A stretch of 10,379 bases of DNA from SAR116 cluster bacterium (GTDB lineage Bacteria; Pseudomonadota; Alphaproteobacteria; Puniceispirillales; Marisalimonadaceae), in contig NZIY01000016.1 of the NCBI GenBank assembly GCA_002691795.1, positions 17,822 to 28,200 of the forward strand. The letters run 5' to 3'. The notes beneath the pieces are model-generated. The model searched no databases. It was not told the DNA's origin and worked only from the letters and a program-made list of their open reading frames with translations. This document shows, one piece after another, positions 590-10,321 of the stretch (positions are counted from its first letter, which is position 1; the number at the start of each line of letters is the position of its first letter). A program made the translations under genes and the position numbers.

Positions 590-2182
590 ATGTTAAATTT
601 TTTTATAAAGGGATTTAGGGTCAGTGCTTTGCTTACAATTGTAAGTAGAGTATCAGGTTTTGTAAGAGATATTTTTCTAGCTTATTTTTTAGGTGCGGGC
701 ATACAATCAGATATTTTTTTAATCTCATCTAAGTTACCCAATTTATTTAGGAGAATAACAGCTGAAGGAGCAATGACTTCATCTTTCTTACCTATATATT
801 CACAATTATTACATATGCAAAAAAATGATAAGGATAATGCACAAAAATTTTCTGCAATAATTTGTTTTATTCTCCTTTTTTTATTATTTATAATTGTAAC
901 AATTTTTGAAATTTTTATGCCAGAAATTATTTCCGTTATTGCTCCTGGAATTATTAAAAATTCAATGATATTTGATCAAGTTGTTATAATTTCGAGGTTC
1001 ACTATTATCTTTTTGCCATTTATTTCTTTAACAGCATTATTTGGTGCAATGTTGAACGCTTCAGGAAGGTTTTTTTATTTTGCTTTTACACCTATTATTT
1101 TTAACTTAATAATTATTTTAGCATGTTTTTTTATAACAGAAAATTTTAAAATAAAGTCTTTGCCTCTAGCTATTGCAATGCCAATTGCAGGATTCGTTCA
1201 ACTATGCTTTATTTTTTATTTTGCCAAAAAATTTAAATTAATTAATAAAGCTTTTTTCAAGTTATCTAACTTTACAAAAAATAGTTTTTTAAATTTTAAA
1301 ACATATATCTCGAAAGCTTTTAAGAGATTTCTGCCAGCAGTTTTCACAGGCGGAATTTTCCAAATTAATATTTTAGTTGATACAATATTAGCTACCTTGG
1401 TAGGCTTTGGGGCTGTATCTTTTTTATATTATGCAGATAGAATCATTCAATTGCCTTTAGGCATCATTGGTGTTTCTTTAGGAACGGCTTTAGTATCCTC
1501 AGTTTCTCATCCTAAAGTAATTAATAATGATAACAGAATTTCAGACCAATTAATTCGAGCTATTAAAATATCAATATATTTTTCAGTTCCATCAATGCTT
1601 TCTTTGATATTTTTTTCAGAATTTATAATAAGTGGTTTGTTTGAAAGAGGTAGCTTTCAAATAGAATCTGTCAAGTCCGTTGCTTTAGCACTGAGCATGT
1701 ATTCATTAGGTTTACCATTTATAATGATTATAAAGTGTTTACAATCGGTATTTATAGCTCTTGGTCAATTAAAAAAAATCCTATTTATTTCTATTATTCA
1801 GTTAAGTTTGAACATTGTACTTTCAATTATCTTAATGAAATACTTAGCGCATGCTGGCATTGCATTAGCTACAACAATATCAAATTTTTTTGCGTTTATA
1901 ATTTATATAATTTATACAATAAAAAAGAAAAAACTTAAAATGAAAACATTAGATAAAAATAAATTAGATGGCTTAGATAACATTGTTTTATACATTCTAA
2001 AAATTTTATTTATATCTTTTATTATGATTTTTATTTTATATCAATTTCTTTACCAAACAAATTTCAGTTCAGGTTTTATTTATCTTTCTTTATTTACAAT
2101 TTTAGGAGTTTTGTTTTATATAATTATAACATATATTACAAAAACAATACCAACTGAATTATTTTCAAAAAAGAATTTATGA
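590..2182 (+). CDS. murJ: MurJ (MviN), lipid II flippase
   Basis: An inner-membrane MOP-superfamily protein that moves lipid-linked peptidoglycan precursor (lipid II) from the cytoplasmic to the periplasmic face. The product has 530 residues, within the usual range, and is hydrophobic along almost its whole length, consistent with about 14 membrane helices. The N-terminus carries the family signature: SRVSGFVRD at 19-27, then a GAG-x-x-SD segment, then [12 protein letters not shown] at 50-61. R20, R26, D41, R54 and E59 line up with the central-cavity residues known to matter in E. coli MurJ (there two numbers lower). The YYADR segment with the following [11 protein letters not shown] (around residues 280-300) is also typical. 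The ATG at 590 has no clear Shine-Dalgarno sequence. The stop overlaps the trpS start (ATGA, 2179-2182), so the two are probably translated in a coupled way. Confidence 0.95.
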
Positions 2183-6980: not shown

Positions 6981-7034
6981 TTTTTATAATAAATTTAATA
7001 TTTATGTAATATTGCTCATTTAAGATTCTGTCGA

Positions 7035-7145
7035 ATGGTTAGTAAAGATTATTTTATTGATAAAAAATTTGAAACCATTGATTTTTGTGTTGTAGTATTA
7101 ACTGATAAAATAGTTAATCGTTATTATTCTAAATTTTTACATTAA
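7035..7145 (+). CDS. Possible small ORF of 36 codons in the rimI-plsC gap
   Basis: An ATG-started frame, MVSKDYFIDKK... to a TAA at 7143-7145, fills most of the 181-base gap between rimI and plsC. I recognise no family. The peptide is mixed, with a short hydrophobic stretch (FCVVVL), and has no clear signal peptide. There is no Shine-Dalgarno sequence upstream. The frame is open back to 6999 but with no earlier ATG. In many alphaproteobacteria this slot holds fur; I see no Fur histidine or cysteine motif here. In DNA this AT-rich a 36-codon frame is only slightly longer than expected by chance, so it may be noncoding spacer. Confidence 0.2.
   Translation: MVSKDYFIDKKFETIDFCVVVLTDKIVNRYYSKFLH
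7097..7118. repeat. Inverted repeat in the rimI-plsC gap
   Basis: ATTAACT (7097-7103) and AGTTAAT (7112-7118) are perfect complements separated by eight bases. They could form a seven-pair hairpin with one G-C pair, or serve as a dyad for a regulator. It lies about 45 bases upstream of the plsC start. Thermodynamically it is weak, with no following T-run, so a terminator is unlikely; chance is a real alternative. Confidence 0.2.
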
Positions 7146-7976: not shown

Positions 7977-9332
7977 ATGAAAAAATTATTTATCAAAACA
8001 TATGGTTGTCAAATGAACTTTTATGATAGTGATCATATGTCAAATTTGTTAAAGGATAGTGGGTATACAGTTTCTGAAGAGGTTAAGGAAGCTGACTTAG
8101 TAATTTTAAATACGTGTCATATTAGAGATAAAGCAGCAGAAAAAGTATATTCTGATTTAGGCCGAATAAAAAAAGTGTATGAAAATAATCATTTAAGGAA
8201 ACCTATAATAGCTGTTACGGGTTGCGTTGCACAAGCCGAGGGAAAAGAAATAACTAAAAGATCACCGTGGGTTGATTTAGTAGTTGGACCTCAAGCTTAT
8301 ACAGATTTACCAAAATTGATTGAAAAAATAAAACAAAAACCTGACCATAAACAAATAAATCTAAAATTTCCTGAAGTTCCAAAATTTGATCTTCTTAACT
8401 TTAAATCAAAAAAGAGTAAAGTTTCTGATTTTATCACTATACAAGAAGGATGTGATAAATTTTGTTCTTTTTGCGTTGTTCCATTTACAAGAGGTCCTGA
8501 ATATTCAAGATCAAAAAAATCTATCTTGGAAGAGATTAAAATAATGGCGAAAAAAGGTGTAAAAGAGGTTGTATTGCTTGGACAAAATGTAAATGCATGG
8601 AAAGATTCATCAGATGAAAAAAAGCATTTCAGTCTTGGAAGTTTAATTCAAGAAATTGCAGATATTGATACAATACTATCCATAAGGTATACCACGTCAC
8701 ATCCTTTAGATATGGATTTAGACTTAATAAAGGCACATAAATATGTTGATAAATTAATGCCTTATTTACATTTACCAATTCAATCAGGATCTGACAAAAT
8801 ATTAAGAAAAATGAATAGAAGGCATACTACAAATCAATATTTAAAAATAATAGAATTAGTTAAAAGATACCGTGAAGATATAGCAATTTCGTCAGATTTT
8901 ATTATTGGGCATCCTGATGAAACTGAAGATGATCACAAGAAAACACTTGCAGTTATTGATGAAGTTAAATTTTCTAGTTCATATTCTTTTGTTTATTCTG
9001 AGAGACCTGGGACAAAATCTTCAGAATTAAATAACAACGTTGATGATAAAACTAAGAAAAAAAGACTTTATGAAATTCAAAAAAGATTAAGTTATTTTCA
9101 ATTAGATTTTAATAGAAAAATGGAAAATTTAATTTTCCCAATCTTAATTACAGATAAAAATAAAAATAACCAATTAGTGGGGAGATCACCATACAATCAA
9201 AGTGTTTACATAAATGAACATAATTTACCAACTAAATATAATAATGTAGAATTAATAGGTAAAATGATGAATATAAAAATTGAAGTAGCAAACCAAAATA
9301 GTCTTTTGGGTACATTAATAGATTATGCTTAA
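7977..9332 (+). CDS. miaB: MiaB, tRNA-2-methylthio-N6-dimethylallyladenosine synthase
   Basis: Radical-SAM methylthiotransferase that converts i6A37 to ms2i6A37 in tRNAs reading UNN codons. It needs two [4Fe-4S] clusters. Its 451 residues include an N-terminal methylthiotransferase domain with three cluster ligands: C11 in KTYGCQMN, C47 in NTCHIRDKA and C83 in TGCVAQ. The radical-SAM domain has EGCDKFCSFCVVP with C159, C163 and C166 (CX3CX2C). Conserved stretches follow, including LPIQSGSDKIL, RRHTTNQY and SDFIIGHPDET. A C-terminal TRAM domain begins at about 378. All six ligand cysteines are present. The family choice of MiaB over RimO or MtaB rests on the NTC-x-IR-x-KA string, the length, and phoH following. 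It begins eight bases after plsC without a Shine-Dalgarno sequence and overlaps the next start by eight bases. Confidence 0.96.
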   Translation: MKKLFIKTYGCQMNFYDSDHMSNLLKDSGYTVSEEVKEADLVILNTCHIRDKAAEKVYSDLGRIKKVYENNHLRKPIIAVTGCVAQAEGKEITKRSPWVDLVVGPQAYTDLPKLIEKIKQKPDHKQINLKFPEVPKFDLLNFKSKKSKVSDFITIQEGCDKFCSFCVVPFTRGPEYSRSKKSILEEIKIMAKKGVKEVVLLGQNVNAWKDSSDEKKHFSLGSLIQEIADIDTILSIRYTTSHPLDMDLDLIKAHKYVDKLMPYLHLPIQSGSDKILRKMNRRHTTNQYLKIIELVKRYREDIAISSDFIIGHPDETEDDHKKTLAVIDEVKFSSSYSFVYSERPGTKSSELNNNVDDKTKKKRLYEIQKRLSYFQLDFNRKMENLIFPILITDKNKNNQLVGRSPYNQSVYINEHNLPTKYNNVELIGKMMNIKIEVANQNSLLGTLIDYA

Positions 9333-9540
9333 AACTAACAATATTAAAAACAAATTGTCTAATTTTGAAGATATGAGACAAATTGAATTAACATTTAATT
9401 CAAATGAAGATTTAAATCTTTTGTTAGGAAAAAACTCTAAAAATTTAGAAAAGTTAAATGAAGCTCTTAATGTAAAAATAAACTTTTTTGGAAATAAGTT
9501 GATTATTATTGGTAAAAAAAAAAAATATAGAATTAACTGA
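9325..9540 (+). CDS. phoH: PhoH N-terminal domain, first part of a frameshifted phoH
   Basis: A 71-codon frame that overlaps the miaB stop by eight bases, exactly where phoH starts in alphaproteobacteria. Residues 18-63 (RQIELTFNSNED...LLGKNSKNLEKLNEAL...KLIIIG) match the N-terminal domain that PhoH proteins carry before the ATPase core: a strand, then a 'which is the hit' loop, then a short KH-like fold. After Gly63 the frame runs through a stretch of 12 A (9514-9525), reads four Lys, and ends at a TGA (9538-9540). Loss of one A, or gain of two, would join it to the ATPase frame and give a protein of about 331 residues, close to the family's normal length (E. coli YbeZ is about 346). I therefore read this as half of one gene, not a separate small protein. 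Confidence 0.75.
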   Translation: MLKTNNIKNKLSNFEDMRQIELTFNSNEDLNLLLGKNSKNLEKLNEALNVKINFFGNKLIIIGKKKKYRIN

Positions 9541-10321
9541 AAAATTATTTAAAAAAGTTTATGATATTCTCATATTAGATAAAGAAAATAACCAATATGT
9601 TGATTTTTCTATCTTTGAGTCTGAATACAGTATGTTAACTAACAATAATTCAGTTGATACTTCAACTAAGGTTGTAAATTCTGTTGAAACTTGGAAAAAA
9701 ACAATATATCCGAAAAGTGACGGTCAAAAAAAATATTTAAAAGCTATTGAAGATTATGATTTGATATTTGGATTAGGTCCTGCAGGCACAGGTAAATCTT
9801 ATTTAGCAGTTGCAAAGGCTGTAGAATTTTTAAAAAAAGGCAACATTGATAAAATAATACTTTCTAGGCCAGCAGTTGAAGCAGGAGAAAATCTAGGTTT
9901 TCTACCTGGTGATATGAAAGATAAAGTTGACCCATATTTAAGACCAATTTATGATGCTTTATATGAAATGATACCTTTTCAAGTTGTTGAAAAAAAAATT
10001 CAAGAAGGTACAATTGAAATTGCTCCTGTTGCTTTTATGAGAGGTAGAACATTTAAGAATTCATTTATAATAATTGATGAAGCTCAAAACACTTCTTCTA
10101 TACAAATGAAAATGATTTTGACAAGATTAGGTCATGGCTCTAAAATGGTTTTAAATGGTGATTTGTCTCAAATTGACATAAAATATATAAACGATTCTGG
10201 TTTAAGTGCTGCACAAAAAAAACTTTCTCATATAAAAAAAATAAAGTTTATCAATTTTAATAAAAAAGATATTGTAAGGCATAATCTTGTTTCTGAAATT
10301 ATAAAAGCTTATGGACATTAA
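9509..10321 (+). CDS. phoH: PhoH-family ATPase (YbeZ-like), core domain, second part of a frameshifted phoH
   Basis: PhoH/YbeZ proteins are P-loop NTPases tied to RNA metabolism and usually sit next to ybeY. The Walker A motif is GPAGTGKS (90-97 counted from the TTG at 9509). Family strings follow: LSRPAVEAGENLGFLPGDM (118-136), VDPYLRPIYDAL (140-151) and EIAPVAFMRGR (170-180). Walker B is IIIDEAQNT (187-195), then NGDLSQID and DIVRHNLV near the end. The ATPase core is complete. If translated alone from TTG at 9509 the product is 270 residues and lacks the usual N-terminal domain, which lies in the preceding frame (9325-9540). This frame only opens after a TGA at 9500-9502, so any crossing must occur within 9503-9540. 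The TTG has no clear ribosome binding site. The last 11 bases overlap ybeY. Confidence 0.9.
   Translation: MVKKKNIELTEKLFKKVYDILILDKENNQYVDFSIFESEYSMLTNNNSVDTSTKVVNSVETWKKTIYPKSDGQKKYLKAIEDYDLIFGLGPAGTGKSYLAVAKAVEFLKKGNIDKIILSRPAVEAGENLGFLPGDMKDKVDPYLRPIYDALYEMIPFQVVEKKIQEGTIEIAPVAFMRGRTFKNSFIIIDEAQNTSSIQMKMILTRLGHGSKMVLNGDLSQIDIKYINDSGLSAAQKKLSHIKKIKFINFNKKDIVRHNLVSEIIKAYGH
9514..9525 (+). repeat. Homopolymer of 12 A at the phoH frame junction
   Basis: Twelve consecutive adenines, the longest single-base run I see in the window; others reach about nine. It lies in the middle of the short interval where both phoH frames are open. Runs of this length are known to cause polymerase and reverse-transcriptase slippage and sequencing indels. 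Confidence 0.9.

What the first reader, a model, noticed from the sequence alone, without database searches (positions are those of the whole stretch)
9325..10321. phoH is split into two frames exactly at a 12-A run
The N-terminal PhoH domain (9325-9513) and the ATPase core (from about 9524) are both well conserved but lie in different frames. The first frame stops at 9538-9540 and the second opens only after a TGA at 9500-9502, so the crossing must fall within 9503-9540. That interval contains a run of 12 A (9514-9525). With 11 or 14 A the two parts join as ...IIIG-KKK-NIELTEK..., giving about 331 residues, normal for PhoH. Three explanations are open: a sequencing or assembly indel; a recent inactivating frameshift; or a gene in which RNA polymerase slippage on poly(A) restores the frame, as described for AT-rich endosymbionts. 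A classic -1 ribosomal slip would not restore this frame, because a net loss of one base is needed.
Basis: partly seen in the sequence, partly recalled or inferred. Interest (0 to 1): 0.7.

Follow-up and report, generated by a model that had tools for sequence, protein, structure and literature searches.

The report
phoH split at a poly-A run
A common bacterial gene (phoH) is cut in two in this draft genome because a long run of A's is out of register, but an uninterrupted copy of the same protein exists elsewhere, so this is most likely an assembly error or a passing mutation rather than a new way of reading a gene.

Summary
In detail: 12 A at 9514-9525 sit exactly where phoH changes frame. 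The genome is a 2.03 Mb, 82-contig, 85% complete draft of a SAR116-type alphaproteobacterium. The break is not conserved. The 8 congener phoH loci found (12 congeners searched) all read in one frame, with at most 7 A at the junction. A 331-aa database protein, on contigs of at most 15 kb (the window's contig is 79 kb), matches both pieces without an amino-acid difference. Among 115 A/T runs of 10 or more classified in this genome, three further genes are split the same way: folC, coaE and an EamA transporter. Nearly all congener copies found are intact. All four breaks are in A runs of 10-12 and displaced in the same sense. A conserved, slippage-rescued gene is therefore unlikely. Best reading: a homopolymer length error in a strain-composite draft; second, a genuine but transient replication-slippage allele. 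If the allele is real, RNA polymerase slippage is expected on it, but the commonest slip (one base inserted) would not restore this frame. Only reads or transcripts can separate error from allele.

The parts
9325..9540 (+). 5' piece of phoH (N-terminal, KH-like part), ATG 9325, stop TGA 9538-9540; overlaps the end of the miaB-like gene (7977-9332) by 8 bases
   Evidence: ORF list; residues 1-66 identical to the start of the 331-aa protein P0001
9514..9525 (+). run of 12 A, the only long homopolymer in the interval where the frame must change (9503-9540)
   Evidence: sequence; the only run of 12 on the 79-kb contig
9503..10321 (+). 3' piece of phoH (P-loop ATPase core), frame open from after TGA 9500-9502; first listed start TTG 9509
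   Evidence: ORF list; PF02562 E=4.5e-90; the 268 residues from 9515 identical to the end of P0001

Best explanation
The 12-A run is a homopolymer length error in a draft genome built from a mixed SAR116 population; the gene in the organism is an ordinary uninterrupted phoH of 331 residues. Shown: the split in this assembly, the same protein uninterrupted on other contigs, in-frame congeners, and three more genes split at long A runs in the same sense. Inferred: that the wrong run length arose in sequencing or assembly rather than in the cell.
For: P0001 (331 aa; 7 member sequences, 3 contigs, longest 15,262 bases, so not the 79,013-base contig C25) equals ORF1 for residues 1-66 and all 268 residues of ORF2. 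A second database protein, P0121 (70 aa, 2,177-base contig), follows the same sequence for 65 residues and then departs in another way at the same run, as if assemblers break there (inference). 8 of 8 congener phoH loci found are in one frame; 4 of the 12 congeners gave no phoH. Further splits: folC at A11, coaE at A11, an EamA gene at A10, displaced in the same sense as phoH; congener copies open in 10 of 10 (folC), 8 of 9 (coaE; the ninth is a partial match, 91 aa open, one TAG) and 4 of 4 close orthologues (EamA). By the strict test (45 or more open codons, or the end of the fetched stretch, on both sides) splits are 1 of 47 at A10 and 3 of 14 at A11 or longer, Fisher p=0.035. Contig C25 carries 603 N, 564 of them single; of 567 inside compared genes 381 fall on third codon positions, so the draft seems to merge strains. 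Some A runs sit in identical flanks on two contigs, which also fits a composite.
Against: The contig is otherwise clean: among 70 genes compared with three congener contigs only phoH shows a two-frame split, and most classifiable long A runs in the genome are in frame (57 of 61 in the A sense by the strict test). phoH lies in the contig's longest N-free stretch (10,379 bases), the fetched coaE and EamA stretches hold no N, and the folC break is about 320 bases from the nearest N, so strain merging is not visibly the cause. No reads were available. The run length in the DNA behind P0001 was not seen.
Confidence: 0.57

Rival explanations
1. A genuine, recent replication-slippage allele: some cells of the population carry 12 A and make a truncated or reduced-yield PhoH, while others carry the uninterrupted gene.
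For: No amino-acid difference from the uninterrupted P0001 outside the junction, as for a very young mutation. Breaks concentrate in the longest A runs. The draft samples a polymorphic population.
Against: Four genes broken in the same sense in one draft, among them folC and coaE (usually essential, recalled), is much for a free-living cell. In 327 kb of three congeners, 28 runs of 10 or more gave no split once two abutting-gene flags were dropped (18 in frame by the strict test); but 4 of 61 against 0 of 18 is not a significant contrast (p=0.57).
Confidence: 0.33
2. A gene read through its frame break by RNA polymerase slippage on poly(A), as in Buchnera and Blochmannia.
For: Runs of 9 A or T slip efficiently in bacteria, and 12-50% of transcripts are corrected in the endosymbiont cases (PMC5009743 passages). 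Blochmannia vafer has eight such genes (PMC3017870 passages). In Buchnera, deletion slips in homopolymers also rise steeply with run length (PMC5574713 passages). Four genes here share the pattern.
Against: Break and run not conserved: 8 of 8 congener loci in frame with at most 7 A; the 10 folC congeners have at most 6 A at the junction. Same-species uninterrupted copy. The frame needs a net loss of one base or gain of two, whereas slips in homopolymers were mostly one-base insertions in E. coli and Buchnera, and that study saw no error that restored a frame (PMC5574713 passages).
Confidence: 0.07
3. The downstream frame is its own gene: a shortened PhoH started at TTG 9509 or an internal start, without the KH-like part.
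For: The ATPase core is complete and a start codon exists at 9509.
Against: The start lies inside the upstream ORF just before the run. The 8 congener loci keep a full-length frame, and 108 of the 120 listed PhoH hits (of 7,818 found) are 318-347 aa long.
Confidence: 0.02
4. Programmed ribosomal frameshifting at the A run.
For: Poly-A is slippery for ribosomes (recalled).
Against: A -1 slip enters the third frame, which stops just after the run (sequence); no such arrangement in the congeners. Stimulatory elements were not tested.
Confidence: 0.01

Closest known systems
Poly(A) frameshifts with transcriptional slippage in Blochmannia and Buchnera (PMC3017870, PMC5009743, PMC5574713; passages seen)
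   Same: AT-rich genome, A run of 9-12 at the break, both parts of the gene otherwise intact, several housekeeping genes affected
   Different: Not conserved in the congeners seen; uninterrupted copy in the same species; SAR116 are free-living (recalled) and the genome is 2 Mb; the sense of the shift is not the one repaired by the commonest slip
Homopolymer length errors in draft genomes (recalled)
   Same: Concentrated in the longest homopolymers, one base out of register, uninterrupted copies on other contigs, draft with many single ambiguous bases
   Different: No other two-frame split among 70 genes of the contig, and the gene lies in an N-free stretch
PhoH/YbeZ family of P-loop ATPases (PF02562)
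   Same: Core domain at 4.5e-90; gene follows a miaB-like gene (MiaB name recalled from its UPF0004, radical SAM and TRAM domains)
   Different: Reading frame interrupted in this assembly

Membership tests
Gene rescued by poly(A) transcriptional slippage | Run of 9 or more A at the frame junction, both parts otherwise intact | tested here: met
   12 A; no other stop in either part; both parts identical to P0001 up to the junction
Gene rescued by poly(A) transcriptional slippage | Frame break and run conserved among strains or species | tested here: not met
   8 of 8 congener loci found in frame, at most 7 A; uninterrupted 331-aa copy
Gene rescued by poly(A) transcriptional slippage | Mixed A counts in mRNA and full-length protein | not testable with these tools
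   No RNA reads or proteomics available
Gene rescued by poly(A) transcriptional slippage | Frame restored by the prevailing slip (single-base insertion) | tested here: not met
   The frame relation needs a net loss of one or gain of two; prevailing slip from PMC5574713 passages. Not a strict requirement: deletion slips occur too
Homopolymer length error in an assembly | Other assemblies carry the uninterrupted gene | tested here: met
   At protein level: P0001 on contigs of at most 15,262 bases; DNA not seen
Homopolymer length error in an assembly | Raw reads disagree with the assembled run length | not testable with these tools
   No reads held
Homopolymer length error in an assembly | Breaks concentrate in the longest runs | tested here: met
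   1 of 47 at A10, 3 of 14 at A11 or longer, p=0.035; small numbers, and a real slippage allele would show the same
Programmed -1 ribosomal frameshift | A -1 slip enters the downstream frame | tested here: not met
   The downstream frame is the other one
PhoH family | PF02562 match over its cut-off | tested here: met
   301 bits against a cut-off of 27

The most novel reading that the evidence does not exclude
Frame-broken alleles in long A tracts of housekeeping genes (phoH, folC, coaE, an EamA transporter) really segregate in this SAR116 population and stay partly functional because RNA polymerase slippage yields some corrected transcripts: a free-living, large-population counterpart of what is described for insect endosymbionts.
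Probability: 0.06. Interest if true: 0.6.

Novelty: not a real feature. Interest (0 to 1): 0.15.

Why it matters
As it stands the finding is mainly a caution: long A runs are where this AT-rich marine draft breaks genes, and four such breaks sit in it. If the alleles were real and expressed through slippage, the phenomenon would extend from endosymbionts with small populations to abundant free-living plankton, where selection should remove it. That would be worth a read-level survey.

Tried and rejected
General frameshifting in the assembly: rejected for contig C25, where 70 genes compared with three congener contigs show one two-frame split, phoH. In the same comparison 14 other congener ORFs matched over 90% of their length or less without a second frame; four of these rows lie at contig ends, two are the remnant at window 7014-7142, and eight (three places) were not pursued. 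Conserved slippage: rejected on congeners and P0001. Chance coincidence of run and break: rejected by arithmetic. Flags dropped from the split counts: L148, G009 contig C3 at 5520, G006 contig C9 at 42607 and G009 contig C3 at 85849 (each an upstream gene ending at the run and a downstream ORF with its own ATG just before it), and L265 (flagged on the other strand only; the A sense shows a 333-codon frame ending just past the run). The looser test counted folC as in frame and flagged L148; the looser test could likewise have missed a folC-like split in the congeners, so the stricter test was repeated on them. Coverage: one search counts 122 runs of 10 or more; searches list 26 and 93; two listed places (on C81 and C82) were not fetched; 115 distinct runs were classified, 50 of them unclassifiable by the strict test and not checked one by one, so further splits near gene ends may have been missed. 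The third protein search (folC 3' piece) was badly chosen: full-length proteins lay outside its length range, so it says nothing on uninterrupted folC in the same species. Viral contigs: two PhoH relatives at 44% identity, not used. Paper searches: 'transcriptional slippage' with 'Pelagibacter', 0 papers; 'SAR116', 'frameshift', 'homopolymer', 2 papers, judged irrelevant from the listing; homopolymeric tracts in free-living bacteria, 2 papers, one already in hand; searches on Minimus2 drafts (one paper each) and on assembly indels (0 papers) gave nothing used.

Full report
What is there. In the window a 71-aa ORF (9325-9540) and an ORF of 270 aa (9509-10321, frame open from 9503) overlap in different frames around a run of 12 A at 9514-9525. 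The second is PhoH (PF02562, 4.5e-90). The first gives only a weak KH-type match below cut-off. The window is G000:C25:17822-28200, in a draft of 2,035,001 bases in 82 contigs, 84.9% complete. Five congener contigs have the same lengths as named records: SAR116 cluster bacterium AG-426-A06, Alphaproteobacteria bacterium MED-G100, and uncultured SAR116 isolates AG-895-J18, AH-287-A08 and AG-891-N20. The organism is therefore a SAR116-type alphaproteobacterium (inference).

Is the break conserved? Not in what could be seen. Of 12 congener genomes, 8 gave a phoH locus at 81-82% identity; all 8 have one open frame of 335-336 codons, with a longest A run of at most 7 near the junction. Of the other four drafts, three gave no match and one only two weak matches. 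The 20 loci fetched from the rest of the family and one from the order (L011-L031) are also single frames of 322-347 codons.

Is there an uninterrupted copy in the same species? At protein level, yes. The best database hit, P0001 (331 aa; 7 member sequences, 3 contigs, longest 15,262 bases), matches residues 1-66 of the upstream piece and all 268 residues of the downstream piece without a difference. The window's contig is 79,013 bases, so these are other contigs. P0002 (331 aa, 30 differences) is likewise uninterrupted with the same residues at the junction. A search with the 71-aa piece found one protein, P0121 (70 aa, 2,177-base contig), identical for 65 residues and then different in a way that run length alone does not explain. 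I read that as another assembly breaking at the run (inference). The DNA behind these proteins was not seen, and a frame-correcting gene caller cannot be wholly excluded.

Is the whole draft like this? On contig C25, ORFs of at least 120 aa from three congener contigs (306 ORFs, 212 with a hit) cover 70 distinct genes, and only phoH shows a two-frame split; 14 other partial matches show none. Across the genome, one search lists 93 runs of exactly 10 A/T and one search lists 26 of 11 or more; 115 distinct runs were classified. With 45 or more open codons, or the end of the fetched stretch, required on both sides, 46 A10 runs and 11 runs of A11 or longer pass in frame in the A sense, 2 pass in the T sense, 50 stay unclassified and 6 were flagged as splits. 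Two of the six were dropped (L148, abutting genes; L265, other strand only). The four kept are phoH (A12), folC (L155, A11; Mur ligase middle and C-terminal domains on the two pieces, the second below its cut-off; name recalled), coaE (L266/L137, A11; PF01121) and a transporter with EamA domains on both pieces (L258, A10). In all four the frame is displaced in the same sense. Splits are 1 of 47 at A10 and 3 of 14 at A11 or longer, p=0.035.

Congener orthologues of the other three: folC open in 10 of 10, with at most 6 A at the junction; coaE open in 8 of 9, the ninth being a partial match with one TAG; EamA open in 4 of 4 close orthologues, with 8 further weak matches set aside as other genes, one of them in G000 itself. 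As a control, 28 runs of 10 or more in 327 kb of three congeners were put to the same strict test: 18 in frame in the A sense, 1 in the T sense, 7 unclassified, 2 flagged. The two flags are the same pair of abutting genes in two genomes and were dropped. That leaves 0 of 18 against 4 of 61 in G000, p=0.57, so the control does not show G000 to be unusual.

What kind of assembly? C25 has 603 N, 564 of them isolated, and the window is exactly its longest N-free stretch. Of 567 N inside compared genes, 381 are at third codon positions, 130 at first and 56 at second. That is the pattern of synonymous variation between strains, so the draft is probably a composite (inference). Against the simplest story, the broken genes are not next to N's: phoH lies in the N-free window, the fetched coaE and EamA stretches hold none, and folC has the nearest N about 320 bases away. 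So if this is an error it probably arose in a primary contig, not in merging.

How would it work if real? Runs of 9 A or T slip efficiently in bacterial transcription, and frameshifted endosymbiont genes give 12-50% corrected transcripts (PMC5009743, passages). Blochmannia vafer has eight such genes and 153 poly-A tracts of 9 or more in coding regions (PMC3017870, passages). In E. coli and Buchnera, slips in homopolymers are mostly one-base insertions (in Buchnera 151 of 157 insertions but 16 of 57 deletions fell in homopolymers), and no restored frame was seen; in favour of rescue, Buchnera deletions in homopolymers also rise with run length (PMC5574713, passages). The four genes here would need a net loss of one base or gain of two. 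Some rescue would be possible, but this is not the arrangement that slippage serves best.

Verdict. I favour a run-length error (0.57) over a genuine transient allele (0.33), with functional slippage at 0.07. The tools cannot separate the first two; reads can.

Noticed in passing
L155 (G000:C55:2651-2662), 1456-2289 and 987-1529, minus strand: folC (Mur ligase middle and C-terminal domain matches; name recalled) is split between two frames at an A11 run; 10 of 10 congener copies are open with at most 6 A there.
   Followed up: yes
L266/L137 (G000:C12:323-334): coaE (PF01121) ends early at an A11 run; its C-terminal part continues in another frame, as the congener C-termini show.
   Followed up: yes
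L258 (G000:C72), 485-1018 and 975-1367: A transporter with EamA domains on both pieces is split at an A10 run; four close congener orthologues are open.
   Followed up: yes
window 7014-7142, + strand: A 43-residue remnant of the C-terminus of a 285-291 aa congener protein (56% identity; looks like an OlsB-type acyltransferase, recalled) lies between the GNAT gene and the acyltransferase gene; the rest of that protein is not in the window (tblastn). Probably a real gene loss.
   Followed up: partly
G000:C25 outside the window: 603 N in 79 kb, nearly all single, clustered and enriched at third codon positions: the draft looks like a strain composite. Some A runs have identical flanks on two contigs (L151/L162, L214/L260, L222/L262).
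   Followed up: partly
L124 (G000:C10:360-375) and L154 (G000:C54): The longest runs seen: 16 bases apparently ahead of a heme A synthase-like gene (name recalled) and 13 bases between divergent ORFs, possibly promoter-linked.
   Followed up: no
G004:C1:131747-132013 (L299): The coaE match in this congener is partial (91 aa open) with an in-frame TAG; not examined further.
   Followed up: no
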